Shown here: positions 5,323 to 21,231 of the stretch, piece by piece
Layout: each line of letters opens with the position of its first letter
Numbering within the stretch: position 1 is the first letter of the stretch
Virus record (IMG/VR): IMGVR_UViG_3300025778_000008
Coordinates: 1 to 33,339 of that record
Reading direction: 5' to 3' (one strand)
Length of the DNA stretch: 33,339 nucleotides
Source of the DNA: a virus
Notes under the pieces: model-generated
What the model saw: the letters and a program-made list of their open reading frames with translations, nothing else
What the model was told of the DNA's origin: nothing
Databases searched by the model: none
Position numbers and translations under genes: made by a program

Positions 5323-5488
5323 TGTTTCCCCTTTCTAGTTCGTCTGCTAAAGTTCGGTATTGAGCCGAGTTAAATAAATACATCCAGTGAAGTACATCAT
5401 GCTTTTCAAACTGGTCAAAAGCTAGAACCATGTAATACCACTCCAGATGCCTAAGTTCGTAATAGTTTAAATATCTATTTGTGTCCAT
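5294..5488 (-). CDS. Hypothetical small protein, aromatic-rich
   Basis: 64 residues with many Tyr/His/Trp (NYYELRHLEWYYMVLAF; HDVLHWMYLFNSAQY). It is helical, not clearly membrane-spanning, with the C-terminus overlapping the SSB start by 29 bases and the start overlapping the exonuclease stop by 14. Position between exonuclease and SSB suggests an accessory recombination or replication role, but nothing in the sequence identifies one. Confidence 0.58.
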   Translation of the reverse strand: MDTNRYLNYYELRHLEWYYMVLAFDQFEKHDVLHWMYLFNSAQYRTLADELERGNNVQPNSNYR

Positions 5489-6242: not shown

Positions 6243-6853
6243 TATTTAACCTCAAATAATTTAGATTTCATTTGATCTTTAGCTTTTATTGCAGTTATTC
6301 TATAAGTTTCATTATTATTGCAATATAGATATGCAGCCTTAAAAGCCTTTTCTAGTTCTATTAAGTTTTGGCAGTCCCCAATAGCAGTTATTAGATCGGC
6401 AGCTACGGATTCGTTAAACTCAGGTTGTTTCATAACGGTTTTGACTGGTGTTTCAGGTCTATTACTGGCAACATTTCCATCGTCATCCTCTGGACTAATG
6501 CCACATGCAGCCATTAAAGAACCTCGTCTTGCATACGTCAAACAAGCCATTGCGCCCTGTGGATCGTTTTTAGCTATTGGGAATCTAAGAATCCCAGTCT
6601 CTAAAGTTTCACCTGATTCATGCAGGAATACGGTTTCAATCATTATTCCTCCATCACAATCGTATGACTTTTGAATAAGAGCAATTCCGTTGTTATTCAA
6701 AGCTCCAAGTACTGCCTCAACACAATTTTCTAGTTTGGCAAACTTAGATTTGAAATGAGGATTTACCGCAGTTCTAAGAACCGGAGAAAACTCACGTTGA
6801 GCTTTGACAAATGCCGTAGCAATTAATTTCCCGCCTTGATTAGTTTGTGTCAT
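6242..6853 (-). CDS. erf: ERF-family single-strand annealing protein
   Basis: 203 residues from ATG 6853. The frame is open 51 bases further upstream, but that part overlaps a micropeptide gene and ATG 6853 has a G-rich site. Diagnostic ERF features are the N-terminal LIATAFVKAQREF / NPHFKSKFAKLENC segment and the block GAMACLTYARRGSLMAACGI followed by SPEDDDGN. P22 Erf circularises the genome by homologous annealing of redundant ends; a terminally redundant headful phage would need this. The C-terminal third (about 140-203) is helical and variable. Confidence 0.9.
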   Translation of the reverse strand: MTQTNQGGKLIATAFVKAQREFSPVLRTAVNPHFKSKFAKLENCVEAVLGALNNNGIALIQKSYDCDGGIMIETVFLHESGETLETGILRFPIAKNDPQGAMACLTYARRGSLMAACGISPEDDDGNVASNRPETPVKTVMKQPEFNESVAADLITAIGDCQNLIELEKAFKAAYLYCNNNETYRITAIKAKDQMKSKLFEVK

Positions 6854-6936
6854 ACCTGTGCCCCTGTTAAATATCCAATAATAAATACGCAAATAATGAT
6901 GCAAGCGTAAACGACTAATTTATCTTCTTTGTCCAT
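6850..6936 (-). CDS. 28-residue single-pass membrane micropeptide
   Basis: Begins MDKEDKLVV, then a hydrophobic helix YACIIICVFIIGYL, and ends TGAQV. AAGGAG lies eight bases upstream of the ATG. The start overlaps the upstream stop (TAATG, 6934-6938) and the stop overlaps the ERF start (ATGA, 6850-6853). A good ribosome site plus coupled junctions on both sides make translation likely. Function unknown; compare the micropeptide at 4784-4897. Confidence 0.6.
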   Translation of the reverse strand: MDKEDKLVVYACIIICVFIIGYLTGAQV

Positions 6937-7130
6937 TATTTGATCTCCTTAAGTGGTGGATATAAAGCATCAAGCTCAAGTCTTCTAACAAACTTAATTA
7001 ATTCAGCCTGGGAAGTTATTTTGTGTCCGGTGTAGTCATGGACTAGATTTAGGACTGATACGATACCATCTTGGTAACCATCACGGTAGTAATCCAAATT
7101 GGATTTTGAGGGGAGATTTTTATTTTCCAT
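6936..7130 (-). CDS. Hypothetical small protein, first gene of the leftward early operon
   Basis: 64 residues: polar N-terminus MENKNLPSKSNLDYYRDGYQ, then SVLNLVHDYTGHKI and ELIKFVRRLELDAL. Soluble and helical. AAGGAA lies about nine bases before the ATG. It is the first ORF after the leftward promoter and so the earliest product on that strand; such genes are often host-takeover or regulatory proteins. No family is recognised. Confidence 0.6.
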   Translation of the reverse strand: MENKNLPSKSNLDYYRDGYQDGIVSVLNLVHDYTGHKITSQAELIKFVRRLELDALYPPLKEIK

Positions 7131-7183
7131 CTTTAGTTTTCCTTAGTTAAAAATGACGTACGGGTTTGTAGCGTCTGGGATTG

Positions 7184-7193
7184 AGTATATACT
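7184..7193 (-). promoter_or_regulatory. Leftward early promoter -10 region within a 10-bp palindrome
   Basis: AGTATATACT is a perfect 10-bp palindrome. On the minus strand it supplies a TATACT -10 (7189-7184), about 54 bases upstream of the first leftward gene. No good -35 is visible 16-18 bases further up, so the promoter may be weak, activator-dependent or repressor-controlled. The palindrome could also be an operator for the Cro-like protein. Confidence 0.45.
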
Positions 7194-7240
7194 TTAATCG
7201 ACACACTTTTGATGTATTTTGCAAAAAAATATTAAAAATG

Positions 7241-7270
7241 TTGGATTTTGTCCATTTTTGTGGCTATACT
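7241..7270 (+). promoter_or_regulatory. Rightward early promoter for the Cro-like gene, with candidate operator
   Basis: TTGGAT (7241-7246), an 18-base spacer and TATACT (7265-7270) form a plausible sigma-70 promoter. The expected start site (about 7277) falls at the ATG at 7278, so the mRNA would be leaderless. Overlapping the -35 is a short dyad TGGA-N5-TCCA (7242-7254), a candidate operator. The rest of 7131-7277 is AT-rich and holds no gene. Confidence 0.55.
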
Positions 7271-7277
7271 TTACATT

Positions 7278-7445
7278 ATGGACATTAACAAAGCAATTGA
7301 ATTGGCAGGATCGCAAAGCAATCTTTCTAGGCTTTTAGGGGTATCTAGGGGCGCAGTTTTCAACTGGACTTTGAAAGGTTTGCCTAAAATGCGAATTTGG
7401 CAATTGAAAGTGTTGCGTCCAGAATGGTTTGAAATAATCGTGTAG
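7278..7445 (+). CDS. cro: Cro-like helix-turn-helix repressor
   Basis: 55 residues from ATG 7278: MDINKAIELAGSQSNLSRLL, then GVSRGAVFNWTLKGLP, a classic helix-turn-helix (about residues 11-32), and a short RIWQLKVLRPEWF tail. Size and layout match P22-type Cro or YdaS-like proteins that bind operators between divergent early promoters. The gene sits exactly there. The frame extends upstream to a TTG at 7248, but that runs through the promoter. No Shine-Dalgarno sequence precedes the ATG; see the leaderless finding. Confidence 0.82.
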   Translation: MDINKAIELAGSQSNLSRLLGVSRGAVFNWTLKGLPKMRIWQLKVLRPEWFEIIV

Positions 7446-7546
7446 AATTTGTTTAAACACGGCTAGGGTAGCTCCCAAAAAGACGATTCTTCACCGTCCT
7501 GCCGATTGTGTTTTAGTGAAGTCAACCGATGAAGTAAGGTTAAACA
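7446..7546 (+). other. Non-coding leader with potential three-way-junction RNA fold
   Basis: The 101 bases between cro and the next gene contain no ORF of note but several pairings. AAACAC-GGC (7455-7463) pairs with GCC (7501-7503) and GTGTTT (7508-7513), leaving a 4-base bulge. Inside lie GGG/CCC (7466-7468 with 7474-7476) and GACG/CGTC (7482-7485 with 7495-7498). An alternative pairing, CTTCAC/GTGAAG, competes with this fold. It may be a structured leader, an antisense-type RNA or chance; no U-run marks a terminator. Confidence 0.35.
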
Positions 7547-7780
7547 ATGGCAACATTAACGCTTAAAAAAGCCAAAACTATTGGCGAAATTCCCCTTTTA
7601 AATCTTGATGGCAAATTTGTCGTTATGCGACAGTCTCGCCATGTCAAATCATTTAGATTTACCTGTTACATGGATACGCATGAACAAGCTATGCGTGAAG
7701 CTAATAGGTTAACCAAAGCAAATCAAACTGAGCGTTATCTTGTACTTCAAGTACAAGGCTGGGCTGATTGGGAGATTTGA
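7547..7780 (+). CDS. Hypothetical protein preceding the replication gene
   Basis: 77 residues: MATLTLKKAKTIGEIPLLNL, then GKFVVMRQSRHVKSFRFTCY, HEQAMREANRLTKAN and LVLQVQGWADWEI. A mixed beta/alpha soluble protein with basic patches. AAGG lies eight bases before the ATG. Its TGA overlaps the replication gene's ATG (TGATG), so the two are probably made together. The role is unknown; a small nucleic-acid-binding accessory is one possibility. Confidence 0.6.
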   Translation: MATLTLKKAKTIGEIPLLNLDGKFVVMRQSRHVKSFRFTCYMDTHEQAMREANRLTKANQTERYLVLQVQGWADWEI

Positions 7781-8544
7781 TGCACTATTACAAATTTAAT
7801 ATTGCCGATTATCGAAAAGATACGGTACATCTAAATACTGTGGAACATGGTATTTATCGTCAACTTATTGATTGGTATTATTTGGATGAAAAACCTATCC
7901 CAAAAGAAACCGAAACGGTTATTAGGCGGTTACGTTTGGGTTCTGATGAGCAAAAATATTTAGACATAATTCTCAAAGAATTTTTTAAAAATACATCCAA
8001 AGGATATGTACATACAAGAATTGAAGTTGATATTCATGGTTATCAAGAAAATTCTGATAAAAACAGAGCCAACGGAAAGCTAGGAGGTAGGCCAAAGAAA
8101 ACCCAGTCGGTTATTTCTGGGTTATTAAATGAAAGCGAATCAAAAGGCAACCATAAACCATTAACCATAAACCAAGAACCATTAACCAATATAAATACTA
8201 TACAGGCGGGAAACAAGTTTCCCCCTTGTCCTAGTCAGCAGATTTTGGAATTATGGAAAAAGCATTTACCTCATTTAACGCAACCTAGAACATGGGAAGG
8301 TAGTAGGCAGTCGAATCTTAAAAATCGGTGGATACAAGCAAGTAAAAATTCAGATTATTCTGATGGTTACACAAATTTAGAAGAAGGCATACATTGGTGG
8401 GATTCCTTTTTTGAGTACATTGCTAAGGATACAAAACTGGCAATTGGGTTTGAAAGCAAGGATAGAACTTGGAAGCCAGATTTGGAATGGGTGGTAAATG
8501 CAAGCAATTTTCAAAAAATTATTGATGGGAAATACAACAAATGA
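7780..8544 (+). CDS. DUF1376-type phage replication initiation protein
   Basis: 254 residues from ATG 7780 (TGATG junction; GGGAGAT upstream). N-terminal DUF1376 signature: HYYKFNIADYRKDTVHLNTV, EHGIYRQLIDWYYLDEKPIP, VIRRLRLGS, then NRANGKLGGRPKKTQ at about 97-111. A low-complexity linker follows. The C-terminal domain (about 145-254) has ELWKKHLPHL, WWDSFFEYI and KPDLEWVVNASNF..I..GKY, seen in phage O-like initiators. It should recognise the replication origin and recruit host helicase machinery. The origin may lie in the Asn/Thr-rich coding linker near 8130-8210, as in lambda O, but no clear iterons are visible. Confidence 0.78.
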   Translation: MHYYKFNIADYRKDTVHLNTVEHGIYRQLIDWYYLDEKPIPKETETVIRRLRLGSDEQKYLDIILKEFFKNTSKGYVHTRIEVDIHGYQENSDKNRANGKLGGRPKKTQSVISGLLNESESKGNHKPLTINQEPLTNINTIQAGNKFPPCPSQQILELWKKHLPHLTQPRTWEGSRQSNLKNRWIQASKNSDYSDGYTNLEEGIHWWDSFFEYIAKDTKLAIGFESKDRTWKPDLEWVVNASNFQKIIDGKYNK

Positions 8545-8837
8545 GTTTTAAAAAATCAGAAACACAATCCGATGACCAAAAAATAGTATTTGGTTTTTGT
8601 TCAAAATGTTTGTCTAAAGTATTAAATGAGGAATTGATTAAATTTGGAACAACTTGTGAGTCTTGTTTTAATTCTTATTGTCAAGAATTAAGTCCTTACG
8701 ATCCTTTATATAAAAAATATGATGGAGATCCTAAAGGTTGGGCCAAAAGAATAATTGATAGGCATAAATCTGGTGAAAAAGTCAGACCAATTTCATTAAA
8801 ATTTGCAGAGGAAGCATTGAGGTCGCGTTATGTTTAA
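8541..8837 (+). CDS. Zinc-ribbon protein adjacent to the replication initiator
   Basis: 98 residues. Two Cys pairs, FCSKCLSK (about 19-22) and TCESCF (about 39-42), with a further Cys in NSYCQE, form a likely zinc ribbon. The C-terminal half has YDPLYKKYDGDPKGWAKRII and ALRSRYV. It starts by ATGA overlap with the replication gene. In lambdoid layouts this slot holds the helicase loader or partner, so an accessory replication role is a reasonable inference, not shown by sequence. Confidence 0.6.
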   Translation: MSFKKSETQSDDQKIVFGFCSKCLSKVLNEELIKFGTTCESCFNSYCQELSPYDPLYKKYDGDPKGWAKRIIDRHKSGEKVRPISLKFAEEALRSRYV

Positions 8838-9012
8838 AACTATCTGGCAACCAGTCCCAAGGTGGGATATTTCTATCAAAAAACTAGACCGAGCAAAGTA
8901 TCCTATCAGACGTGATGAGTTTAAAAGGGTCAGACCGGTAAAAGACGGTAGATCAAACAGTGGAACTAGACCCAAGCCTGAAATGCGAATCTGGATGTTT
9001 GAAAATGTTTGA
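8830..9012 (+). CDS. Hypothetical basic protein
   Basis: 60 residues, highly basic (about 15 Lys/Arg): MFKTIWQPVPRWDISIKKLD, DEFKRVRPVKDGRSNSGTRP and a terminal RIWMFENV. It overlaps its neighbours by eight bases on each side (8830-8837 and 9005-9012). The basic, Pro/Gly-containing composition suggests nucleic-acid binding. No family is recognised. Confidence 0.55.
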   Translation: MFKTIWQPVPRWDISIKKLDRAKYPIRRDEFKRVRPVKDGRSNSGTRPKPEMRIWMFENV

Positions 9013-9208
9013 CTGGGATGCAGAGTATGAATCAATCGTCAAGTTCTATGCTCAATTAGCAATAAGACCAGGATGGAGAGAATATACAAGAGGGATTGTG
9101 AAAGAGAAAATGAAAACCGAGCCAATATTTAAAAACTTAGGGAGGGACGTAGGAAACAGAATCAAAGAGTTAGAAAGTGTAAGTTTATTAACAACTAAGG
9201 AAAATTGA
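9005..9208 (+). CDS. Hypothetical early-region protein
   Basis: 67 residues from ATG 9005: MFDWDAEYESIVKFYAQLAI, RPGWREYTRGIVKEKM, then LGRDVGNRIKELES. The DWDAEY...YA.LA..PGW..Y pattern recurs in short phage proteins of nin-type regions, as I recall. The longer reading from 8960 runs through the preceding gene and lacks a ribosome site. Soluble, helical, function unknown. Confidence 0.58.
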   Translation: MFDWDAEYESIVKFYAQLAIRPGWREYTRGIVKEKMKTEPIFKNLGRDVGNRIKELESVSLLTTKEN

Positions 9209-9210
9209 AG

Positions 9211-9423
9211 ATGAAATCACAAAACGAACAAATATTAAATTATTTACAAAAAGGTAAGTCGCTAACCGCAATGGATGCTCTTAAGCTATTTGGATGCTTT
9301 AGATTGGCAGCTAGGATCAGAAATTTGAAGGACGATGGTAAAAAGATAGTCTCCTCAAGAAAGCATGTTAAAAACCAATTTGGCAAAGATGTAATCGTTG
9401 CAGTTTATTCATTAAAGGCTTAA
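9211..9423 (+). CDS. Small winged-helix/HTH-like DNA-binding protein
   Basis: 70 residues from ATG 9211; AAGGAA lies about eight bases upstream, which favours this over a TTG six bases earlier. NEQILNYLQKGKSLTAMDAL, then KLFGCFRLAARIRNLKDDG and YSLKA. This is the helix-turn-helix plus wing layout (LTAMDALKLF.C.RLAARI..LK..G) common in short phage proteins. It may regulate early genes or bind the origin. Target unknown. Confidence 0.65.
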   Translation: MKSQNEQILNYLQKGKSLTAMDALKLFGCFRLAARIRNLKDDGKKIVSSRKHVKNQFGKDVIVAVYSLKA

Positions 9424-9425
9424 TC

Positions 9426-9701
9426 ATGAAATATTTACTTATACTTTTAATTCTTGCAGGATGCTCAACAACTCCTGCGCCGGTTCAATACGCTAACCCT
9501 CCAGTAGTTCCTATTGTCCTTGACCCCAAGGTGCAGCAGATGAGCAGGGAGGAAGTAATTTCGGCTACGATCCAATGTGAGAACTCAGGTCTTAGGGCAG
9601 TGCCGGTATTTTCTAAAAGATTGGTCAGCGGATATTTAACGGATATTGTGATTGATTTGCAATGTCTACCTAAACGTAATATTTTTGATGGTAAATTCTA
9701 A
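9426..9701 (+). CDS. Predicted lipoprotein, early expressed
   Basis: 91 residues. Signal sequence MKYLLILLILAGC ends in lipobox LAGC (Cys13), followed by STTPAP and a Pro-rich linker; the folded part includes VQQMSREEVISATIQCENSG and DIVIDLQCLPK. Ser at +2 predicts sorting to the outer membrane by the Lol rule in enterobacteria. It lies among DNA-metabolism genes, away from lysis, so an envelope role early in infection, such as superinfection exclusion, is worth considering. That is inference. Confidence 0.7.
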   Translation: MKYLLILLILAGCSTTPAPVQYANPPVVPIVLDPKVQQMSREEVISATIQCENSGLRAVPVFSKRLVSGYLTDIVIDLQCLPKRNIFDGKF

Positions 9702-9904
9702 TGAACGCAAAAAAAGCAAAAGCACTTAGAAAATCATTAAGAGAAAACAACATTGACGTTTTTGATCAAACTTATGAGACAGATGTAAGGCGAGTTGGCA
9801 AACAAACTCAACTTAAAAAAGAATCAGGTCGATCAATGTACCAAATGCTAAAGAAGACAATATATGAGTACGGACAAAAGAATATTCGTTCTCAGACACT
9901 CTGA
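9701..9904 (+). CDS. Hypothetical basic protein upstream of ninB
   Basis: 67 residues, Lys/Arg rich: MNAKKAKALRKSLRENNIDV, YETDVRRVGKQTQL and GRSMYQMLKKTIYEYG. It starts in a TAATG overlap with the lipoprotein stop, and its last 41 bases overlap ninB. A similar short protein (NAKKAK.LRK, then GR..YQ.LKKT) recurs in phage early regions, as I recall. Nucleic-acid binding is plausible. Confidence 0.6.
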   Translation: MNAKKAKALRKSLRENNIDVFDQTYETDVRRVGKQTQLKKESGRSMYQMLKKTIYEYGQKNIRSQTL

Positions 9905-10268
9905 GGCAAGGCAAAGGGCTAAAGAGTTTGTTTCAGTAGCTCCCGAGGGTTGGGTTGTAGAGTTTAAACCTATGACCCGATCTTTGGAGCAAAATAGCAA
10001 ACTCTGGGCATCTTTGGCAGACATTGCTAAACAAGTAGTCTGGCATGGAAGGAAACTTAGCGCAGAGGATTGGAAACACATCTTTTCGTCTGCGATTAAA
10101 AAACAAGAGGTTGTACCAAACATTGATGGAACTGGGTTTGTGGTTTTAGGTCAATCAACTTCTAAAATGAACAAGAGCGAAATGAGCGAACTACTAGAGT
10201 TGATCATGGCTTTTGGTGCTGAACATAACGTAAAATTTGAGGATGATTATGCCGAGGTCGAAAAGTGA
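9864..10268 (+). CDS. ninB: NinB (lambda Orf-type) recombination mediator
   Basis: 134 residues. Core motifs RSLEQNSKLWASLADIAKQV, WHGRKLSAEDWKHIF, GFVVLGQSTSKMNKSEMSEL and ELIMAFGAEH are those of the NinB/Orf family, which binds SSB-coated ssDNA and replaces RecFOR in lambda. It fits with the phage SSB and ERF on the other strand. The first 41 bases overlap the upstream gene; the last 20 bases overlap the next gene. Confidence 0.9.
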   Translation: MSTDKRIFVLRHSEARQRAKEFVSVAPEGWVVEFKPMTRSLEQNSKLWASLADIAKQVVWHGRKLSAEDWKHIFSSAIKKQEVVPNIDGTGFVVLGQSTSKMNKSEMSELLELIMAFGAEHNVKFEDDYAEVEK

Positions 10269-10428
10269 GATTACAGGATCAAAAGTAAACATTGGTTTGA
10301 GAATGACTGAAAATCAGCGAGATATGTTTAAGGCACTTGGGGGAATCCAATGGTTGAGAAACTATTTGGATAGGCAGATCAGATCAGAGGAAATACAACT
10401 TGGAATAAATAAGGAAGACAGAATATGA
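10249..10428 (+). CDS. Small basic protein, possible DNA-binding
   Basis: 59 residues from ATG 10249: MPRSKSEITGSKVNIGLRMT, then ENQRDMFKALGGIQWLRNYL. The GLRMTENQRDMFKALGG segment resembles a strand followed by two helices, as in ribbon-helix-helix-like phage proteins, but the match is loose. GAGG lies six bases before this ATG, favouring it over upstream starts. It overlaps ninB by 20 bases and the next gene by ATGA. Confidence 0.58.
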   Translation: MPRSKSEITGSKVNIGLRMTENQRDMFKALGGIQWLRNYLDRQIRSEEIQLGINKEDRI

Positions 10429-10952
10429 CTAAAGAAGTAATGAAACAAGCTCTTGAGGCGTTTGAAGCAATCATGATGGTTCGTGACATTAATTCGGCTA
10501 CAACAATTGCTAAAAATGCTAGGTATGGATTGCGTGAGGCACTAAATCAAGATCAAAGTGAGCAGTTAGCAAGACTTGGATGGCAAGAAATTTATTGTCC
10601 AATTTGTGGAGGTGGTGCACGAGCGTTTCCAAAGCAAAAGCAGGGTGAGCCTGTAGCGTGGGTTGACTTGCTAAAGGATGCACAGCAGATTGTCAAAGAT
10701 AAGTTTCTCTACAAACGATTTATTGATGGTACGCCTTTGGCAAACGACATTCCATGCTGGATGGCTGATTTTGCACAGAAATACACCAAACCACAAACTA
10801 AAGAATGGGTAGGGTTGACGGATAAAGAGATATTTGAAATTTGGGAAAAGGCAATGTTTATAAACAACGGAAAACATGCTGTTTTAAACAACCAACCATT
10901 TGTTCATTTTGCAAGAGCAATAGAAGCTAAATTAAAGGAAAAAAATGCCTAA
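10425..10952 (+). CDS. Modular phage early protein of unknown function
   Basis: 175 residues. The N-terminal helix (MTKEVMKQALEAFEAIM) and ...LREALNQ are typical of mosaic phage proteins. One zinc-ribbon-like half, YCPICGG (about 57-63), follows, then EPVAWVDLL and a C-terminal module EWVGLTDKEIFEIWEKA..., ending FARAIEAKLKEKNA. The EWVGLT..EI and FARAIE.KLKEKN ends recur in many phage proteins, suggesting domain shuffling. Only one CxxC is present, so zinc binding would need a partner. Function unknown. Confidence 0.55.
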   Translation: MTKEVMKQALEAFEAIMMVRDINSATTIAKNARYGLREALNQDQSEQLARLGWQEIYCPICGGGARAFPKQKQGEPVAWVDLLKDAQQIVKDKFLYKRFIDGTPLANDIPCWMADFAQKYTKPQTKEWVGLTDKEIFEIWEKAMFINNGKHAVLNNQPFVHFARAIEAKLKEKNA

Positions 10953-11160
10953 AGTACCTCCTTACGACACCGGCAAGATAAAGATTGGATGCAGATACGA
11001 CCCTCCACTAAGAGATCAATACAACCCAGATCAAGACTGGATACAGGAATGGCTACTAGGAATTGAGAAAGATTGGTTTGAAAAAACTGAAAACTTGATT
11101 GAGTATGCAATTTACATCATTGTCATTTATTCAGTTTTAACTTTACTGGGAAGACCGTAA
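10945..11160 (+). CDS. Small protein with C-terminal membrane anchor
   Basis: 71 residues. The N-terminus MPKVPPYDTGKIKIGCRYDP is a motif I recall from short phage early proteins. The C-terminus (about 51-68, IEYAIYIIVIYSVLTLL) is hydrophobic enough to anchor in the membrane, ending GRP. It overlaps the upstream gene by eight bases. A tail-anchored topology would expose the N-terminus to the cytoplasm. Function unknown. Confidence 0.55.
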   Translation: MPKVPPYDTGKIKIGCRYDPPLRDQYNPDQDWIQEWLLGIEKDWFEKTENLIEYAIYIIVIYSVLTLLGRP

Positions 11161-11161
11161 A

Positions 11162-11263
11162 ATGAGACTTGGGAGGTTAACAAGGCACTCCAGGATGTTG
11201 TACTTAGGGAATTTTCCTTGTTTCTGCCCTAACTCGCTGAACAACCAAATGGACTCCCAATGA
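11162..11263 (+). CDS. Possible 33-residue ORF coupled to ninG
   Basis: MRLGRLTRHSRMLYLGNF, then PCFCPNSLNNQMDSQ. It starts two bases after the previous stop and ends in an ATGA overlap (11260-11263) with ninG. The ninG ATG itself has no visible Shine-Dalgarno sequence, so this ORF may serve mainly as a translational feeder. The peptide is basic with two Cys and no recognisable family. GGAAG lies rather far upstream of its start. Confidence 0.38.
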   Translation: MRLGRLTRHSRMLYLGNFPCFCPNSLNNQMDSQ

Positions 11264-11808
11264 CTAAATGCAAGGTTTGCAGGGCAAAATTCACCAAACG
11301 GAGCATGACCCACAAGGCATGCAGCCCAGAATGTAGCCTAATCCTTGTCAATCAAGCCAAGGAGAAGGAAAAGGCTAAGGTGGAGAGACTCGATAGGGTA
11401 AAGACTAAAAAAGCCTTGGAGAGCCTAAAAACTCGATCAGACTGGATGAAGGATGCTCAAAAGGTATTCAACGAGTTTATTCGTGAGCGAGACAAAGCCG
11501 AACCCTGCATTTCCTGCCAAAGATTTCACCAAGGTCAATATCATGCCGGACACTTTGTTTCGGTGGGTTCTAGGCCAAATTTGAGGTTTGACGAGCAAAA
11601 CGTCCATCGTCAATGCGCCCCATGCAACAATCATCTTTCTGGCAACATCATCCACTACAGGATGAATCTCATTAAAAAACTGGGAGTTGAGGCAGTTGTC
11701 AGGCTAGAAACGGACTTTGAGCCTAAAAAATATACGATTGACGATCTAAAAGAAATTATTACAATTTACCGAAAAAAGGTTAAAATGTTAAAAGCCGAGT
11801 GTCATTGA
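11260..11808 (+). CDS. ninG: NinG (Rap-type) recombination endonuclease
   Basis: 182 residues. N-terminal zinc finger C-x2-C...C-x3-C (CKVCRAKF; HKACSPECS), a Lys-rich helical linker, then the HNH-like core CISCQRF....YHAGHFVSVG, NLRFDEQNVHRQCAPCNNHL and SGNIIHYRMNL. This is the NinG/Rap arrangement; Rap cleaves branched DNA such as D-loops and Holliday junctions. It complements NinB and ERF. Its TGA lies inside the -35 hexamer of the late promoter. Confidence 0.92.
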   Translation: MTKCKVCRAKFTKRSMTHKACSPECSLILVNQAKEKEKAKVERLDRVKTKKALESLKTRSDWMKDAQKVFNEFIRERDKAEPCISCQRFHQGQYHAGHFVSVGSRPNLRFDEQNVHRQCAPCNNHLSGNIIHYRMNLIKKLGVEAVVRLETDFEPKKYTIDDLKEIITIYRKKVKMLKAECH

Positions 11809-12311: not shown

Positions 12312-12743
12312 ATGGGACACATAGCTTTAGGTGTAGCATTTGAAGACATGAACCTAATAGGTTCGCAAGCCATTGCAGCCGACAACTCAACTGGTCAACT
12401 TGGTTACAGAGTTGGTTATAGCGGAACAATACCTTCGGTAACACAAGCCACAAGCAAGTCTACAGGCGTGACAATCAACAATGCTTTGGGTAAGATTGTG
12501 ATGAATAACGCTGCTTTAGCTGCATCTGCTGCGGTTAAATTCACAGTTACCAACTCATTAGTGACTGCTGGTGATGTCCCAATTGTGGTAATTGCATCTG
12601 GTGGTACTTCAGGCGATTATTCGATTGATTGCTCCGCAGTTGGCACAGGATCATTTGACATTACTTTACAAAACATTTCCGCAGGATCACTTTCTGAGGC
12701 AGTTGTCATAAGTTTTGCGCTGATTCAAGCGATTGCACTGTAA
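12312..12743 (+). CDS. Head decoration-like beta protein, copy 1
   Basis: 143 residues: QLGYRVGYSGTIPSVTQATS, KSTGVTINNALGKIVMNNAA, then ASAAVKFTVTNS, VVIASGGTSGDYSI and LSEAVVISFALI. The G..VTQATSKST.VT.N...G.I...NAAL pattern is one I recall from small beta-sandwich virion proteins near phage head genes. The next gene is a diverged duplicate. AGGGG precedes the ATG. A capsid-surface decoration role is inference. Confidence 0.6.
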   Translation: MGHIALGVAFEDMNLIGSQAIAADNSTGQLGYRVGYSGTIPSVTQATSKSTGVTINNALGKIVMNNAALAASAAVKFTVTNSLVTAGDVPIVVIASGGTSGDYSIDCSAVGTGSFDITLQNISAGSLSEAVVISFALIQAIAL

Positions 12744-12745
12744 TC

Positions 12746-13174
12746 ATGGGCAATTCCCAAGCAATAGGGGTAGCTTATTCTGACCAAAACATCATTGGTG
12801 CGGACATAGTTTCTGCAAATAATGTGTTTGCAATTGGGCAGATAGGCTACGCAGCAGGGAATTATTCAACTGTTACACAAACAAACAACAAAAATACTGC
12901 GGTAACGATTAACACTCCGTCAGGATCAATTGTTACGGCAACTTCACAACTCGCACCGGCAGCTCAAGGTGTTTTTGTTGTAAATTGTTCAGCAGTAAGC
13001 GCAAAAGACACCGTAGTTGCAAGTGTTGCAAGCGGTGGAACTCTTGGAGCGTACAACGTATTTGTCGCAGCAATAGCAAGTGGTCAGTTCACGGTTGTGA
13101 TCAAAAACTCAACCAACAACGCTTATTCTGAGGCAGTTCAGATCAATTATGCTATTTTGCATACCCAAGGATAA
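12746..13174 (+). CDS. Head decoration-like beta protein, copy 2
   Basis: 142 residues, colinear with the previous product: IGQIGYAAGNYSTVTQTNNK, NTAVTINTPSGSIVT, VVASVASGGTLGAYNV and YSEAVQINYAIL. Both proteins begin G-x-x-x-A-x-GVA(Y/F)-D-x-N-IG, confirming tandem duplication. The start is three bases after the previous stop with little ribosome site, so translation probably depends on the upstream gene. Two decoration-like proteins could occupy different lattice positions. Confidence 0.6.
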   Translation: MGNSQAIGVAYSDQNIIGADIVSANNVFAIGQIGYAAGNYSTVTQTNNKNTAVTINTPSGSIVTATSQLAPAAQGVFVVNCSAVSAKDTVVASVASGGTLGAYNVFVAAIASGQFTVVIKNSTNNAYSEAVQINYAILHTQG

Positions 13175-13482: not shown

Positions 13483-14823
13483 ATGCCCTCGATAGCTGAT
13501 CTTTACTCTACGATTGACAGTTACAAACGCAGGGCATCTGACGTTCTAAGTGACCCACAAAACAGTCTTATGCAGATGTTGGGATTTGCTAACGACAGAT
13601 CCAGAGAATTCAATCAAAATCTAAATCAATCCCTTGGTGTAGAACGAGCCAAGATAAGGGGTGAGCAACCCACTTTAGCGGATTTGAGGGCAGATAAATA
13701 CATCACTGACGAAATGGCAAATGCCGTAATGGGGGGAATGACTGCCTGGCATGGTAGCCCACACACATTCAACAAGTTCGACATGAGCAAGATCGGGACA
13801 GGGGAAGGGGCGCAGGCCTACGGTCATGGGCTTTATCTAGCTGAAAACCCAAAAGTTGCACAAGGCTATCAAAAAGATATATCTAAAAATGCAGGAGTTG
13901 AAGGTACTATTGGTGATATTCCTTTAAGCAAATTACATGAACAAATTAGTCGTAAAGCAGATCGTTTGCCAATTGATAAAGCTCAAGCAGAATACGAAAA
14001 ATTAGCATTTTTGGAAGATTTAGATCAGCAACCAACTTTTAAACATGCTTTAGAAAGAATTGATAGCTCAGAAGTTGAAAAATGGGCCAAAACTTTACAA
14101 GATAAATACAAACCGGCAGGTAATCTTTACAAAGTAGACCTACCAGACGAACACATTGAAAAAATGCTTGATTGGGATAAACCCTTAAGCGAACAACCTC
14201 ATGTAATAAATTCATTAAGAAATCAAGCAAGAATTCAATCTGAACAAGATGCAAGATCAAAATTAGAATCTGAATTAATTCCTACATTGCCAAAGAAAGA
14301 AATAACTGGAAATTATCTTGAAGATTTGTTTGGACAACAAAATAAAGGCAATAAAGATCTTTTAGATCAAATGGTTAACGAAAAACTAAAAACTTTAAAT
14401 TTAACAAAAGAAACTGAAAATTATCTAAATCAATATTTGCCAAAAGATACAAATTGGAATGTATTAGGAAAAGATTTTTATAATAATTTGGCAACTACAA
14501 ATTCAGGCGCTGAAAATGCGTCTAAAAACCTTAAAAATATTGGTATCCCTGGTATTAAATATTATGATGAAGGAAGCCGAAATAATTATTTTTTACAGGG
14601 GCAACAAGGAACTAGAAACTTTGTCATTTTTGACCCAAATTTAGCCAAAATAGAGGAAAGAAACTCCGTTCCAATACCTCAAGACCCGCACCAACCTAAT
14701 TATTTGGATGACCTCCACACAATGCTTGGCTTAAAGTCAAAAGATTTCGATATTTCAGATGTATACTCACCAACCTATTTAGGTGACTTACATTCGTTTT
14801 TATCAACCCAAAAACAACCATGA
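13483..14823 (+). CDS. PARP-like ADP-ribosyltransferase domain protein (ART-PolyVal type)
   Basis: 446 residues. Residues 1-85 (MPSIADLYSTIDSYKRRASD...) are helical, of a type I recall at the N-termini of large phage polyvalent proteins. The ART core runs about 88-392: WHGSPHTFNKFD (His90), GTGEGAQAYGHGLYLAEN (Tyr118) and Tyr129, then IPGIKYYDEGS and TRNFVIFDPN. Tyr118 and Tyr129 are 11 apart, like the nicotinamide-stacking Tyr pair of PARP1. The usual third-motif Glu aligns with Asn379. The C-terminus has YLDDLHTML and YLGDLHSFL. Codons 287-326 (14341-14460) are about 22% G+C, against 45% near the start. It would transfer ADP-ribose from NAD+; target unknown. Position suggests late or virion-linked expression. 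Confidence 0.75.
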   Translation: MPSIADLYSTIDSYKRRASDVLSDPQNSLMQMLGFANDRSREFNQNLNQSLGVERAKIRGEQPTLADLRADKYITDEMANAVMGGMTAWHGSPHTFNKFDMSKIGTGEGAQAYGHGLYLAENPKVAQGYQKDISKNAGVEGTIGDIPLSKLHEQISRKADRLPIDKAQAEYEKLAFLEDLDQQPTFKHALERIDSSEVEKWAKTLQDKYKPAGNLYKVDLPDEHIEKMLDWDKPLSEQPHVINSLRNQARIQSEQDARSKLESELIPTLPKKEITGNYLEDLFGQQNKGNKDLLDQMVNEKLKTLNLTKETENYLNQYLPKDTNWNVLGKDFYNNLATTNSGAENASKNLKNIGIPGIKYYDEGSRNNYFLQGQQGTRNFVIFDPNLAKIEERNSVPIPQDPHQPNYLDDLHTMLGLKSKDFDISDVYSPTYLGDLHSFLSTQKQP

Positions 14824-15020
14824 ACCCACTAAAAATCACGTTCTCTGATCTATCAACTCAAGAAACAGATATCATCTTTGCAGGATTAGGAAGTCTCCCA
14901 ATGGCACAAGTCGAGCAACTGGTGAACAAACTCAGACAACAAGTAGCAATCCAGGTCAGCCAATACCAGGCAAAGATTCAAAAGGAAAGCGAACAAACGG
15001 ACGGAAACCCAGTCCAGTAA
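14820..15020 (+). CDS. Small helical protein upstream of terminase
   Basis: 66 residues: MNPLKITFSDLSTQETDIIF, then GLGSLPMAQVEQLVNKLRQQ and VAIQVSQYQAKIQKES. Gln-rich, amphipathic helix. It starts in an ATGA overlap with the ART gene, so the two are co-translated; a chaperone or immunity-like partner for the ART is conceivable. Equally, similar short proteins sit in head operons without an ART, as I recall. Confidence 0.55.
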   Translation: MNPLKITFSDLSTQETDIIFAGLGSLPMAQVEQLVNKLRQQVAIQVSQYQAKIQKESEQTDGNPVQ

Positions 15021-15131: not shown

Positions 15132-15159
15132 TTGCAATACGTCAATTTAAGCATACAAT
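15132..15159 (+). promoter_or_regulatory. Promoter for the terminase genes
   Basis: TTGCAA (15132-15137), a 16-base spacer and TACAAT (15154-15159). The -10 ends eight bases before ATG 15168, so the predicted start coincides with the start codon and the transcript would be leaderless. No Shine-Dalgarno sequence is seen before that ATG, which agrees. Confidence 0.55.
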
Positions 15160-15167
15160 TGGCAACC

Positions 15168-15638
15168 ATGAAGAAAACAGTTAAATCACAACCCCAAAAA
15201 TTAGGCAGACCTACTCTTTATAAAGAGCAATATGCCCAAGAACTCATAGATTACTTTAATCAACCGGCATACTCGGAGAAAACAATTATTCTCCCCAACG
15301 GAGTAGAACGGACTGAAAGATTATCTAATCTATTCCCCACACTAACCCGATTTGCAGCCAGTAGAGGGGTCACAAGAGACACTTTACATGAATGGGCTAA
15401 CGCAAAAGATGAGAACGAAAGACTTAAACATCCTGAGTTTTCCGACGCGTATAAAGTTGCAAGGCAGTTACAAGAGTCTGTTTTAGTCGAAGGTGCGACT
15501 GCGGGAGTGTTTAACGCACAGTTTTCAATCTTTACCGCAAAGAACATCTTAGGATGGCGAGACAAAACCGAACAAGAAATTACCGGAGCATCTGGTGGCC
15601 CACTTCTTATGCAAGTAGCTACAGACAATGACGCTTAA
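15168..15638 (+). CDS. terS: Terminase small subunit
   Basis: 156 residues from ATG 15168. N-terminal GRPTLYKEQYAQELIDYF, a helix-turn-helix-like segment FAASRGVTRDTLHEWANA, PEFSDAYKVARQLQES, then NAQFSIFTAKNILGWRDKTE. This GRP-x-KY...GVSRDTL-EW...HPEFSDAY...KN--GWRDK pattern is characteristic of phage small terminases, which recognise the packaging site and regulate the large subunit. It overlaps terL by 11 bases. The upstream reading from 15132 overlaps the promoter. Confidence 0.87.
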   Translation: MKKTVKSQPQKLGRPTLYKEQYAQELIDYFNQPAYSEKTIILPNGVERTERLSNLFPTLTRFAASRGVTRDTLHEWANAKDENERLKHPEFSDAYKVARQLQESVLVEGATAGVFNAQFSIFTAKNILGWRDKTEQEITGASGGPLLMQVATDNDA

Positions 15639-16992
15639 GTACACTGAGAAACAACTAGAGGCAATGAAGTTGATGAGTGGTGATGCCACTTACATCATGC
15701 TTTTTGGTGGATCACGTTCAGGAAAGACTTTTACGATTGTTCGGCAGATTGTTACCAGAGCAATTAAGGCAGGAGGGTCAAGGCACACAATCCTACGTTT
15801 TAGGTTCAATCACGTTGTCAACTCGGTGGTGTACGACACTTTCCCAAAAGTAATGAAAGTCTGTTATCCAACAGTAAATTACAAGGTAGATAAAACCCAT
15901 TGGTTTGCAAAGCTAGATAACGGCTCTGAAATATGGTTTGGTGGATTGGATGATAAAGAAAGAACGGAGAAAATTTTAGGGATGGAATTTGCAAGTATCT
16001 ATTTGAACGAATCCAGTCAAATTGCCTGGGGTTCAGTAGGTATTGCTATGACCAGGTTAGCGCAACGAGTTAATCAACAAATACAGGTAAAAGGCAAAAT
16101 AGAAATGAAGCCTTTAAAACCTCGGATGTTCTTTGACTGTAACCCTCCCGACAAAAACCATTGGACTTACAAGATATTTGTACAAAAGCGTGACCCAGAT
16201 ACAGGGGTTAATATTTATAACCCAGAAGATTATGCTTATTTCCAGATCAACCCAAAGGACAACCAAGAGAATCTATCCGATGGCTACATCAAGACTTTAG
16301 AGGGATTATCAGCAAGGCTTAGAAAACGATTTTTAGAGGGAGAGTTTACAGATGCTAACCCCAACCAGTTATTTACAGACCTTTACTTTGACCGTTGGCG
16401 CACTCAAGAGGAAGATTTACCCGAGTTTGTGCGAGTTGTTGTTGGTGTCGATCCCAGTGGAGCAGGGGATAGTGACAACGCTGACAATGACGCAATTGGT
16501 ATTGTTGTAGGTGCTTTGGGAACGGATGGAAACGCATACTTACTGGAAGACTGTACGGTAAAAGCCGGCCCTGCAACTTGGGGTAAGGTGGCAACAAGCG
16601 CATTTGAACGGCATAACGCAGACATAATAGTTGGAGAAAATAATTATGGTGGGGCGATGGTTGAAATGGTTATCCAGGCATCACGACCTAGAACTAATTA
16701 CAAGTCGGTACTTGCCACAAGATCAAAGATGGTCAGGGCAGAGCCGTTTGCTCCACTATACGAACAAGGAAAGATCAGGCATGTAGGTAGGTTTGTTGAT
16801 TTGGAGGAGGAACTTGGAGGATTTAGCACCAATGGTTACAATGGGTCTAAGTCACCAAATCGTGCAGATGCTTGGATTTGGGTGCTAACTGAGTTATTTC
16901 CGGCAATTTTGCGATCAAAAATTGAGAAAAAACCGCAAAACACACCGAAAAAACAATTTAATTCAAACAATTCACCTGGATATTGGATGTAA
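15628..16992 (+). CDS. terL: Terminase large subunit (packaging ATPase and nuclease)
   Basis: 454 residues. ATPase: Walker A GGSRSGKT (27-34), Walker B ASIYLNES with catalytic Glu128, and FFDCNPPD coupling motif. Nuclease (RNase H fold): Asp275 in VGVDPSG, Glu337 in IVGENNYGG and Asp414 in NRADAW. It drives DNA into the prohead and cuts it; with a P22-type portal and ERF, headful packaging is likely. The Lys/Asn-rich C-tail (about 430-454) may contact the portal. It overlaps terS by 11 bases and precedes portal by two. Confidence 0.95.
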   Translation: MTLKYTEKQLEAMKLMSGDATYIMLFGGSRSGKTFTIVRQIVTRAIKAGGSRHTILRFRFNHVVNSVVYDTFPKVMKVCYPTVNYKVDKTHWFAKLDNGSEIWFGGLDDKERTEKILGMEFASIYLNESSQIAWGSVGIAMTRLAQRVNQQIQVKGKIEMKPLKPRMFFDCNPPDKNHWTYKIFVQKRDPDTGVNIYNPEDYAYFQINPKDNQENLSDGYIKTLEGLSARLRKRFLEGEFTDANPNQLFTDLYFDRWRTQEEDLPEFVRVVVGVDPSGAGDSDNADNDAIGIVVGALGTDGNAYLLEDCTVKAGPATWGKVATSAFERHNADIIVGENNYGGAMVEMVIQASRPRTNYKSVLATRSKMVRAEPFAPLYEQGKIRHVGRFVDLEEELGGFSTNGYNGSKSPNRADAWIWVLTELFPAILRSKIEKKPQNTPKKQFNSNNSPGYWM

Positions 16993-16994
16993 TT

Positions 16995-19136
16995 ATGGCA
17001 AATACTACCGAAGACGAAATTGTCAAAAGAGCGCAGGACAACTTTAAACACTGTTTAGACTGGGAGCAAGCGTCAAGACAAAGGTTCAGGGAGGACATGA
17101 GATTCCTTTTTGCTGACTCTGACAATCAAGACCAATGGGAACCGGCAGTAAAAGCCAGGCGGAAGTTAAACACTCAGCCTATGGTCACTATTAATAAGGT
17201 GCACACTCACTGGTTGCATGTTGTCAACAACTTAAAAGAGAATAAACCCTCCGTTTCGGTACATCCAACCAATGACGAAGCCACTTATGAGGCAGCAGAG
17301 ATATTTGAAGGATTGGTAAGACACATTGAGTACATCTCCAACGCTAAGACTGCCTACGATATGGCAGCCGAGCAACAAGTTGGTGGTGGAATAGGATATT
17401 GGACGGTTACAACTGCCTACGCAGACGATTCAACCTTTGACCAAGAGATATATATTAGGGAAGTTCCCGATGCTATGTCGGTCTACCTTGATCCGCATAT
17501 TAAGAAAAGGGACGGATCGGATGCTCGATTTGGGTTTATCTATGAAGATATGCCAAGGGAGGAATTCGAGAAAAAGTACCCTGGCGAATCTGTGCCAATG
17601 GCTTATTCCGGTGGCAATCAGTCCTGGGTGACTAAAGACGTAGTTCGATTGGCTACTTATTACGAGAAAGAGACTAAAAAAGAATGGCTTTACTCTATCC
17701 CTCAAGCTGACGGTTCTTTGAAGTTTGAGAGACAGTCAGATATGAGCAAAGAGGAAGTTAAGATGCTGAATGAAGCAATCCGCATGGGTGCTGACATTGA
17801 GCGCAGACGCATTGACAAGCATGTTATTCACAAGTATTTGATCGGTGGTAACAAGGTATTGGAGAAGGGAATCTGGGCAGGAAAGTACATTCCAATCGTT
17901 CGAGTACCTGGCGAGGAAATGACAATTGAGGGAAGATTAGACCGTAAGGGTCTGGTTCGGTACATGAAAGATGCACAAAGAGCGTACAACTACAACGCTT
18001 CCGCTGCACTTGAATATGGTGCTCTACAGTCTAAGACTCCTTACCTTGCCCCAGTTGAAGCTATTGAAGGACTGGAAAACTACTGGGCTACTGCCAACAC
18101 CGAGAACCATGCTTATCTAGCGTACAACCATGCGGACGAGAATGGAAACGCAATTCCTAGACCGGAGAGGGCACAAGCTCCAATGAGCGCACCGGTTTAC
18201 ATGGAAGGCATGCAGACTGCTGAAAATGAGATGATGATGACCTCTGGGCAGTATCAACAAAGTTTCGGTGCTGAAGGTCAAGAATTGTCTGGGGTGGCTA
18301 TTGACAAGCGCAAATATCAGGGAGAGAGGGTAACTTACCACTTCCAAGATATGCAAAACATGGCTATTCAGTTCACCGGTAAGATTCTTATTGACTTAAT
18401 CCCGCACATTTACGACACCAAACGGACGGTTCGTATTTTGAGTGAAGACGGTGAAGAACAACAGATTATGATCGACCCTAATCTGAAGGAAGCCTTTAAA
18501 CAGATGGAACATAAGGAGGAGGCTAAAGTCTCCACTATTTTCAACCCCTCCGTTGGTTCTTATGACGTAGTAGCTGAGTGCGGATCTAATTACGACACGA
18601 GAAGACAAGAGGCTTTCTCTGCAATGTCCCAGATGATTGCCCAACAACCTCAATTAGCTCAGGTTATCGGTGATCTTTATATGGGCTCGGCAGACTTCCC
18701 GAACGCTGACAAGCTACAGGAACGGATGAGAAACTGGATTCCTCCTGCAATTTTAGGGACTGGCCCGAGCGAGACTGAGCAAGCATTGACTGCTCAACTT
18801 CAACAAGCTCAACAAGTTATTGCTGCGCTGACTCAGCAAGTACAAGATAAATCCATTGATCAGAAGATGGAGAAACAACGCTTGGATATGGACGCATTGA
18901 ATCATTTGGCGATTCGTCTAGAGAAAGAGCGTGACAGTTTAATTAGTGCTTTCAAAGCTGAGACTGAAAGGTTGAAGGCATTAATTACGGATGTGAACCC
19001 TGTGCAGATGGGTGAAATCACAAGCAAGATGGTGAGCGAGATAGAAGGCGCTGACAATCCTGCTAGAGATTTCAACCCAGACCGTATAGACCCCTCACAA
19101 TATTTGCAAGCAGAAATTCCCACTATCACAGGATAA
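16995..19136 (+). CDS. Portal protein, P22 gp1 type
   Basis: 713 residues from ATG 16995 (a TTG at 16983 is open but overlaps terL). Motifs: DWEQASRQRFREDMRFLFAD, INKVHTHWLHVVNNLKENKP, TAYDMAAEQQVGGGIGYWTV, EGRLDRKGLVRYMKDAQRAY, then TSGQYQQSFGAEGQELSGVA. These are typical of P22-like portals. The C-terminal third is a long Gln/Ala-rich coiled coil (about 590-660), matching the P22 barrel. It forms the dodecameric channel and nucleates prohead assembly. Confidence 0.92.
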   Translation: MANTTEDEIVKRAQDNFKHCLDWEQASRQRFREDMRFLFADSDNQDQWEPAVKARRKLNTQPMVTINKVHTHWLHVVNNLKENKPSVSVHPTNDEATYEAAEIFEGLVRHIEYISNAKTAYDMAAEQQVGGGIGYWTVTTAYADDSTFDQEIYIREVPDAMSVYLDPHIKKRDGSDARFGFIYEDMPREEFEKKYPGESVPMAYSGGNQSWVTKDVVRLATYYEKETKKEWLYSIPQADGSLKFERQSDMSKEEVKMLNEAIRMGADIERRRIDKHVIHKYLIGGNKVLEKGIWAGKYIPIVRVPGEEMTIEGRLDRKGLVRYMKDAQRAYNYNASAALEYGALQSKTPYLAPVEAIEGLENYWATANTENHAYLAYNHADENGNAIPRPERAQAPMSAPVYMEGMQTAENEMMMTSGQYQQSFGAEGQELSGVAIDKRKYQGERVTYHFQDMQNMAIQFTGKILIDLIPHIYDTKRTVRILSEDGEEQQIMIDPNLKEAFKQMEHKEEAKVSTIFNPSVGSYDVVAECGSNYDTRRQEAFSAMSQMIAQQPQLAQVIGDLYMGSADFPNADKLQERMRNWIPPAILGTGPSETEQALTAQLQQAQQVIAALTQQVQDKSIDQKMEKQRLDMDALNHLAIRLEKERDSLISAFKAETERLKALITDVNPVQMGEITSKMVSEIEGADNPARDFNPDRIDPSQYLQAEIPTITG

Positions 19137-20028: not shown

Positions 20029-21231
20029 ATGACTACTAATTCTCTACTGACGATTAATCAGATCACCAACGAAGCGGTGCGTCTGTTTACTCAATCTAAT
20101 GCGTTTTTACGCACTGTAAGCCGTCAATATGACGATCAATTTGCTCGTACAGGTGCAAAAATAGGTTCAGCACTCCGTATTCGTTTACCCAACGATTACA
20201 CTGTATCAACTGGCCCTGCAATTACACCTCAAGGCACTAACGAACAAAACACATCTTTGACTGTGGCAACACAAGCAAACGTACCTGTTTCATTCGGTAC
20301 TGCTGAGAAAACATTGTCTTTGGACGATTTCTCTGAGCGTATTCTTGCTCCTGCCGTTAACCGTCTCGCAGCATACGTTGCAGCCGACTTAATGAACGTA
20401 GCTTCACAATCAGCCAACATCACACCTAACTTGAGTGGTTCAACACTATCAAGCCCAAATGCGACTACATGGTTGACTGCTGGATCTGCACTTGATCAAA
20501 ACTTGTCCCCAAGAATGGATCGTAAGATTATTCTTGACCCAGTTACTCAAGCTCGTACAGTGTCTTCATTAGCCGGTTTATTTAACCCACAAGTTAAAAT
20601 CGGTGAAAACTATGAAACTGGTATTATTACCAAGGACACACTCGGATTTGACTGGATGTATGACCAAACTACTCTAGTTCACACAGTAGGTTCGTTCTCT
20701 GCCGGTACTGTTAACGGTGCAAACCAAACAGGTACAACTCTGACAGTTAACGCTATCACTGGTACATTGAACCAAGGTGACATCATCACTATCGCGGGTG
20801 TATATGCAATCAACCGTTTGACTGGCAACTCACAAGGTCAGCTCCGTCAATTCGTTGTTACATCTAACGTAAACTCTGGCGCTACAAGCATACCAATTTA
20901 CCCTGCTATTACTCCTGCTCCTGCCGCGTTTAATACAGTAACTGCATCTCCTGCTAACTCAGCAGCGATCAGCCTGGTAATGCCAGCGTCATCTAGCTAT
21001 CGTCAGAACATTGCATACTTCCCAGAGGCTTTCACGTTGGCAACTGCTGACTTAGAGATGCCTACTGCCGGTGTTGTGCAAGCTGCACGCGCTCAGTTTG
21101 ATGGCATCTCCTTACGTATGATTGAGGCTTATGATGTTATGTCAGACTCCTTGATCACTCGTTTGGATATTTTGTACGGCTACGCTGCGATTCGTCCAGA
21201 GTGGTCATGTATTGTTCCTGATATCGTTTAA
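20029..21231 (+). CDS. Major capsid (coat) protein, P22 gp5 type
   Basis: 400 residues. N-terminus NSLLTINQITNEAVRLFTQS, NAFLRTVSRQYDDQFARTGA, IGSALRIRLPNDYTVSTG and then SFGTAEKTLSLDDFSERILA are typical of P22-like coats with HK97 fold. A beta-rich insertion (about 223-302, NGANQTGTTLTVNAITGTLN...GDIITIAGVYAIN) corresponds in place to the P22 I-domain/telokin region. The C-terminus is LDILYGYAAIRPEWSCIV. AAGGAGGT is the best ribosome site in the window, as expected for the most abundant protein. Confidence 0.93.
   Translation: MTTNSLLTINQITNEAVRLFTQSNAFLRTVSRQYDDQFARTGAKIGSALRIRLPNDYTVSTGPAITPQGTNEQNTSLTVATQANVPVSFGTAEKTLSLDDFSERILAPAVNRLAAYVAADLMNVASQSANITPNLSGSTLSSPNATTWLTAGSALDQNLSPRMDRKIILDPVTQARTVSSLAGLFNPQVKIGENYETGIITKDTLGFDWMYDQTTLVHTVGSFSAGTVNGANQTGTTLTVNAITGTLNQGDIITIAGVYAINRLTGNSQGQLRQFVVTSNVNSGATSIPIYPAITPAPAAFNTVTASPANSAAISLVMPASSSYRQNIAYFPEAFTLATADLEMPTAGVVQAARAQFDGISLRMIEAYDVMSDSLITRLDILYGYAAIRPEWSCIVPDIV

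What the first reader, a model, noticed from the sequence alone, without database searches (positions are those of the whole stretch)
13483..14823. PARP-like ADP-ribosyltransferase in the head operon with a variant third motif
His90, Tyr118 and Tyr129 reproduce the H-Y plus second-Tyr spacing of PARP1 (11 residues between the two Tyr), but the Glu position of the third motif is Asn379 (RNFVIFD). Variants lacking Glu usually do mono-ADP-ribosylation or are inactive. The helical N-terminus and placement before terminase suggest a protein that is packaged or acts at assembly, possibly injected to modify the next host. The co-translated 66-residue partner (14820-15020) may be a chaperone or inhibitor.
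Basis: partly seen in the sequence, partly recalled or inferred. Interest (0 to 1): 0.62.

Follow-up and report, generated by a model that had tools for sequence, protein, structure and literature searches.

The report
Swappable phage effector gene beside terminase
This freshwater phage gene encodes a probable ADP-ribosylating enzyme attached to a short conserved front piece, and related phages carry other enzymes (a protease, an acetyltransferase, a ParB-like domain) behind the same front piece at the same spot next to the DNA-packaging genes, as if it were a slot for exchangeable weapons delivered to the host.

Summary
The 446-aa ORF at 13483-14823 has an ART fold with H90, Y118 and Y129, and Asn379 in the third-motif position. 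Asn is not a lesion: it is present in 149 of 158 related ART domains, with Cys, Gln or Gly in the other 9 and never Glu or Asp. This is a distinct H-Y-N family, sister to ART-PolyVal, lying just upstream of terminase and portal. Its N-terminal ~80 aa are a header with no Pfam/PHROG match, found in 55 distinct genes from phages with two deeply diverged terminase types; all 46 with enough flanking DNA have a terminase or other head gene nearby. Behind the header sit an ART, HExxH peptidases, a GNAT or ParB-like domains. On the TerL tree cargo needs at least 21 changes. Phages with 96%-identical TerL differ in cargo, with breakpoints at header and tail boundaries. Within the ART, two inserts also shuffle independently. 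The 66-residue neighbour is identical beside different cargoes, so it is not an ART-specific inhibitor. Packaging, injection and catalysis are inferred, not shown. New variant of a known kind (polyvalent/MuF-like effectors).

The parts
13483..13740 (+). N-terminal header (aa 1-86, helical), proposed delivery/packaging module
   Evidence: Shared with phages of a different terminase lineage (header profile built from those finds the window ORF, E=1.4e-23); DNA homology to the peptidase-bearing relatives L015/L070 ends exactly at 13740; 46/46 header genes with >2 kb downstream have TerL, portal or MCP nearby
13732..14670 (+). ADP-ribosyltransferase-fold cargo domain (aa 84-396): H90 codon 13750-13752, Y118 13834-13836, Y129 13867-13869, N379 14617-14619
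13734..13885 (+). ART conserved island 1 (HGSP ... GTGEGAQAYGHGLYLAEN ... Y129)
   Evidence: DNA island shared with relatives (80-88% identity) between unrelated inserts
13886..14117 (+). Exchangeable insert V1 (33% GC)
   Evidence: V1 pairs are 96-100% or at most 26% identical among close relatives; recombined independently of V2
14118..14200 (+). ART conserved island 2 (GNLYKVDLPDEHIEKMLDWDKPLS)
   Evidence: 83 bp, 93% identical to L003, L014, L053
14201..14603 (+). Exchangeable insert V2 (26.6% GC, among the lowest 403-nt windows of the contig, which averages 41%)
14604..14697 (+). ART conserved island 3 with strand 5 / Asn379 (GTRNFVIFDPN)
14683..14727 (+). Tail repeat 1 DPHQPNYLDDLHTML (aa 401-415)
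   Evidence: Repeat motif occurs only in this gene and its close relatives; also follows each cargo module in relatives with several modules
14758..14802 (+). Tail repeat 2 DVYSPTYLGDLHSFL (aa 426-440)
   Evidence: DNA homology to peptidase-bearing relatives resumes at 14698 (97%)
14820..15020 (+). 66-aa ORF, 4-bp overlap with the ART gene; function unknown, not cargo-specific
   Evidence: Identical beside different cargoes, no homologue beside ART genes with the other tail version; no Pfam match, no significant PHROG match
15132..15638 (+). Terminase small subunit (context)
   Evidence: phrog_3064 E=7.5e-24
15628..16992 (+). Terminase large subunit (context; marker for the survey)
   Evidence: phrog_979 E=9e-65
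16983..19136 (+). Portal protein (context)
   Evidence: phrog_156 E=8e-110

Best explanation
The gene is a header-cargo effector of a tailed phage. Residues 1 to about 86 are a conserved helical header that probably directs the protein into the virion during head assembly (inferred). Residues 84-396 are the current cargo, an ART-fold enzyme of an H-Y-N family that most likely uses NAD+ to ADP-ribosylate a host macromolecule after being ejected with the DNA (fold and conserved residues shown; activity, target and delivery inferred). Residues 397-446 carry a repeat tail that marks module ends in this phage group. The slot is kept filled at a fixed place upstream of terminase, but its content is exchanged by recombination at the header and tail boundaries (shown by comparison). 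The shared DNA islands and the phage's own Erf/NinB/NinG recombination genes probably help the exchange (inferred). The enzyme's two inserts are exchanged separately, which would retarget or disguise the effector (inferred).
For: ART fold and conserved residues. Head-gene linkage: for the window; independent phages have the ART next to TerL, between TerL and portal, or near the major head protein; 46/46 header genes with >2 kb downstream. Header with several cargoes: ART, HExxH/LPD23 peptidase, GNAT (Acetyltransf_1 E=1e-4, above cut-off), ParB C-terminal-like (phrog_2579 E=7e-28 to 4e-36). Swapping: 21 changes on the TerL tree, shuffled mean 24.0; breakpoints at 13740 and 14698; slot filled in every close relative with enough upstream sequence; insert shuffling V1/V2. 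Delivery: best PDB fold match of the compact ART is a chain of the cyanophage A4 pre-ejectosome (prob 0.98, E=2.4e-3); a relative fuses SLT transglycosylase and this ART (L176); precedent of virion-borne ARTs such as T4 Alt (PMC5512222, PMC9503650). Recombination genes.
Against: No virion proteomics, no enzymatic data and no target. Foldseek to PDB does not reach E<0.001, and superposition is loose (TM about 0.4). The third motif lacks the Glu used by poly-ADP-ribosylating enzymes. Cargo calls for some loci rest on motifs. All data are metagenomic contigs.
Confidence: 0.62

Rival explanations
1. Late-expressed, non-packaged effector (moron-like): the protein acts inside the producing cell, for example against defence systems or competing phages, and lies next to terminase only because that is a tolerant insertion point in the late operon.
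For: No direct proof of packaging; swapping of cargo is also typical of anti-defence and moron loci (own knowledge).
Against: A moron locus would often be empty and need no shared header; here the slot is always filled in close relatives and the header recurs across two diverged TerL clades. Related ARTs occur in large polyvalent proteins with SLT.
Confidence: 0.2
2. NAD+ glycohydrolase (NADase) rather than transferase: without Glu the ART fold hydrolyses NAD+, starving the host or NAD-dependent defences.
For: Some Glu-lacking ART-fold toxins are NADases (own knowledge); N379 invariant.
Against: The same survey found ART NADases under-represented in viruses (PMC9503650); conserved HGSP, GTGEGAQ, YxDxxSR motifs and variable inserts suit a substrate-binding transferase.
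Confidence: 0.2
3. Assembly factor: the protein modifies or processes phage structural proteins during head assembly.
For: Position between late genes and terminase.
Against: A structural substrate would not tolerate replacement of ART by peptidase, GNAT or ParB-like domains in phages with near-identical TerL.
Confidence: 0.06
4. Inactive pseudo-enzyme or decaying gene.
For: Asn in place of the catalytic acid.
Against: H, Y, Y and N are near-invariant across 158 divergent regions from phages and bacterial contigs; intact ORFs.
Confidence: 0.05

Closest known systems
ART-PolyVal (Pfam PF18760) / Tox-ART-HYD2 ARTs of phage polyvalent proteins (Iyer et al. 2017, PMC5512222)
   Same: ART fold, His in strand 1, Tyr in strand 2, phage head-gene context, proposed injection; detectable profile similarity
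   Different: Third-motif residue is Asn, not the Asp stated for that family; long insert regions; below Pfam cut-off; single enzymatic cargo behind a short header instead of a giant multi-domain protein
MuF polymorphic toxins of temperate phages (PMC12226406)
   Same: Conserved N-terminal part linked to phage head genes with exchangeable enzymatic part
   Different: No MuF domain found; header of ~80 aa is unrelated by profile search; no cargo-specific immunity gene seen; neighbour 66-aa gene does not follow the cargo
Phage T4 Alt
   Same: ART-fold enzyme proposed to be packaged and injected
   Different: Alt belongs to the R-S-E clade; here H-Y-N, different gene context, exchangeable cargo
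PARP1 / tankyrase
   Same: H-Y-second Tyr spacing and fold core
   Different: Glu absent, so poly-ADP-ribose synthesis not expected; no PDB sequence match

Membership tests
ART superfamily (fold) | Split beta-sheet ART core with His on strand 1 and Tyr on strand 2 | tested here: met
   AF2 models and Foldseek PDB rows for the compact relative, almost all ART fold; conservation. PDB E-values are no better than 2e-3
ART-PolyVal PF18760 | Profile score at or above curated cut-off (31.2 bits) | tested here: not met
   21.8 bits for P0001; a distant relative L174 just reaches 31.2
ART-PolyVal / Tox-ART-HYD2 | Asp in strand 5 | tested here: not met
   Asn379; 0 of 158 homologues have Asp or Glu; definition from PMC5512222
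H-Y-E PARP-type ARTs | Catalytic Glu in third motif | tested here: not met
   Asn379 invariant
ART superfamily (activity) | NAD+-dependent transferase activity | not testable with these tools
   No biochemistry possible
Polyvalent proteins (Iyer 2017) | Two or more domains of different activity in one polypeptide | tested here: not met
   Window protein has one enzymatic domain; close relatives L003 and L008 have two ARTs, L066 a peptidase plus a further ART-like module
Polyvalent proteins (Iyer 2017) | Injected with the DNA | not testable with these tools
   Context only
MuF polymorphic toxins | N-terminal MuF domain | tested here: not met
   No MuF match in Pfam or PHROGs for P0001 or the other header proteins scanned
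MuF polymorphic toxins | Cognate immunity gene next to the toxin | tested here: not met
   The adjacent 66-aa gene is the same beside different cargoes

The most novel reading that the evidence does not exclude
An unrecognised class of phage polymorphic effectors: a single-gene slot at the terminase locus, defined by an ~80-aa header ending near a YNPxG[MI] junction, whose cargo (H-Y-N ART, zincin, GNAT, ParB-like and others) is swapped between near-identical phages. A second level of diversity is combinatorial exchange of two inserts inside the ART, i.e. retargeting of an injected enzyme by shuffling.
Probability: 0.6. Interest if true: 0.78.

Novelty: new variant of a known kind. Interest (0 to 1): 0.62.

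Why it matters
If the header is a delivery signal, it is a short tag that sends unrelated enzymes into a virion and then into bacteria. That would make the long-standing but mostly computational idea of injected polyvalent effectors testable with small single-domain proteins. It also gives a way to find new effectors: read whatever follows the header upstream of terminase. The natural V1/V2 recombinants offer matched enzymes for finding what sets the target of an injected ART.

Tried and rejected
Direct sequence search of PDB gave only spurious helical matches (DsbA, tektin), and the family profile gave none. Foldseek of the full-length model to PDB was non-significant because of the long inserts, so a compact relative was folded instead. 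PADLOC gave no hit. The 66-aa ORF as ART inhibitor was rejected by its constancy next to other cargoes. The chance that V1/V2 shuffling is assembly chimerism was considered: several combinations recur in separate metagenomes (L005/L006; L008/L009/L010; L011/L012; L025/L026) and the shared islands are not identical, so chimeras are unlikely but not excluded. The tail repeat was searched in all other ORFs of the window and the loci then held and found nowhere else. Literature on the cyanophage A4 pre-ejectosome was not in the library. phiGT1 virion proteomics exists, but its table is in a supplement that could not be opened.

Full report
OBSERVATION. The ORF at 13483-14823 encodes 446 aa and overlaps a 66-aa ORF by ATGA. 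Small terminase, large terminase and portal follow, and the major head protein lies at 20029-21231. Pfam finds ART-PolyVal at residues 88-135 with E=3.5e-4, below the curated cut-off.

THE ENZYME. In a 22-sequence alignment, His90, Tyr118, Tyr129, Asp362, Ser365, Arg366 and Asn379 are invariant. In 158 distinct regions taken from phage and bacterial contigs, N379 is Asn in 149, Cys in 7, Gln in 1 and Gly in 1, never Glu or Asp. The search patterns partly demanded Asn, so I looked at the 95 regions whose third motif does not match the pattern: 86 still have Asn. The residue is therefore the rule of the family and under selection. The published clades are H-H-h, H-Y-[EDQ] and R-S-E (PMC9503650), and polyvalent-protein ARTs are given as H-Y-D (PMC5512222); H-Y-N lies outside these labels. 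Classical PolyVal domains taken from the same contigs show mixed residues (Asp, Glu, Asn and others) in that column of my alignment. They align to this family by profile with probability 96% and E=3.8e-9, over the first 40 columns only. AlphaFold2 gives high confidence over most of the core. Foldseek finds viral proteins named ART-PolyVal-like. For a compact relative (L013) almost all of the best 50 PDB rows are ART enzymes, with E no better than 6e-3 for those. The single best row is a chain of the cyanophage A4 pre-ejectosome (prob 0.98, E=2.4e-3), a hint, not proof, that ART-like domains sit in ejected proteins.

THE SLOT. Relatives with almost identical flanks carry different middles. Against L015, window DNA is 91% identical up to 13740 and 97% from 14698, with nothing alignable between; L015 has an LPD23-like part (Pfam E=3e-4, below cut-off) and an HExxH motif there. 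Surveying by terminase rather than by ART gives an unbiased view: every phage with TerL at least 92% identical and enough upstream sequence has a gene with the same repeat tail there, never an empty slot. Its first module is this ART, an HExxH peptidase, an FGHAVHG module, or one of two other ART-like domains.

THE HEADER. A profile of the N-terminus from other phages recovers the window protein with E=1.4e-23. Scanning viral contigs for the header gave 55 distinct genes among the 80 loci kept. All 46 with more than 2 kb downstream have a terminase large subunit, portal or major head protein nearby. The cargo is ART in most, LPD23/HExxH peptidases in many, a GNAT acetyltransferase in L290 (Acetyltransf_1 E=1e-4, above cut-off), and ParB C-terminal-like domains in L285, L268 and L281 (phrog_2579, E from 7e-28 to 4e-36). 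In most, cargo begins after a YNPxG[MI] junction. On a TerL tree of 61 phages the cargo label needs at least 21 changes; shuffled labels need 24.0 on average and reached 21 or fewer in 10 of 200 shuffles. L280 (peptidase), L281 (ParB-like) and L023 (ART) have nearly the same TerL. Cargo and phage lineage are almost uncoupled.

SHUFFLING INSIDE THE ART. Among ten close ARTs, three core segments are mostly 78-100% identical (core 3 is lower for the window, 66-77%, and for L004, which has an extra insertion there), while insert V1 is either 96-100% or at most 26% identical, and insert V2 is 94-100%, 78% (one pair) or at most 31%. One V1 type occurs with three V2 types (L003/L005/L014, L004, L008), and one V2 type with four V1 types (L004, L007, L012, L025). 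In the window the inserts are 33% and 27% GC against 41% for the contig; only 3 of 3294 sampled windows of that length are as low as V2. The phage carries SSB, exonuclease, Erf-like annealase, NinB and NinG; annealing recombinases are known to recombine short, diverged stretches (PMC3945230). That these genes make the exchanges is inference.

THE 66-AA NEIGHBOUR. It is identical next to ART, peptidase and FGHAVHG cargoes, and no homologue was found in the loci whose ART gene has the other tail version. It follows the tail, not the cargo. A cargo-specific inhibitor is excluded for practical purposes; a factor for the tail is possible.

DELIVERY. Indirect evidence only: linkage to head genes in unrelated phages, fusion of the same ART with an SLT transglycosylase in L176, the pre-ejectosome fold match and the general precedent (PMC5512222, PMC9503650). 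The nearest annotated isolates are Sulfitobacter phage phiGT1 gene 5, between portal and scaffold genes, and Tunturiibacter phage Tunturi_5.

LIMITS. Scans are pattern-based and capped; cargo classes of some loci rest on motifs; all close relatives are metagenomic contigs; no host is known. The ART fold and the header-cargo slot are well supported; catalysis, target, packaging and injection are inferred.

Noticed in passing
window 4909-11808: Lambda-like recombination set: SSB, exonuclease, Erf-like annealase, NinB/Orf, NinG/Rap, a plausible engine for the mosaicism seen.
   Followed up: partly
window 12312-13174: Two tandem genes of ~142 aa both match phrog_18251 (unknown function) and look like paralogues.
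   Followed up: no
L048, L060, L007, L025: Module with YVYQGGDPHDFLNAIDPETGLNTNEKFRAIHDYFGHAVHG, matching only phrog_3170 (unknown function); a candidate new effector domain.
   Followed up: no
L144/L303 (contig IMGVR_UViG_3300020044_006024): Same 4.2-kb contig shows an ART header gene on one strand and a peptidase header gene on the other; probably a palindromic or chimeric assembly.
   Followed up: no
L205, L208, L211, L215 and similar bacterial contigs: A sub-branch of the same ART family with Cys (Gly in L205) in place of Asn in the third motif.
   Followed up: no
L040 3992-4714: H-Y-N ART inside a ~2000-aa protein of a virus assigned to methanogenic archaea (Methanomicrobiales), next to an annotated internal virion protein.
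   Followed up: no
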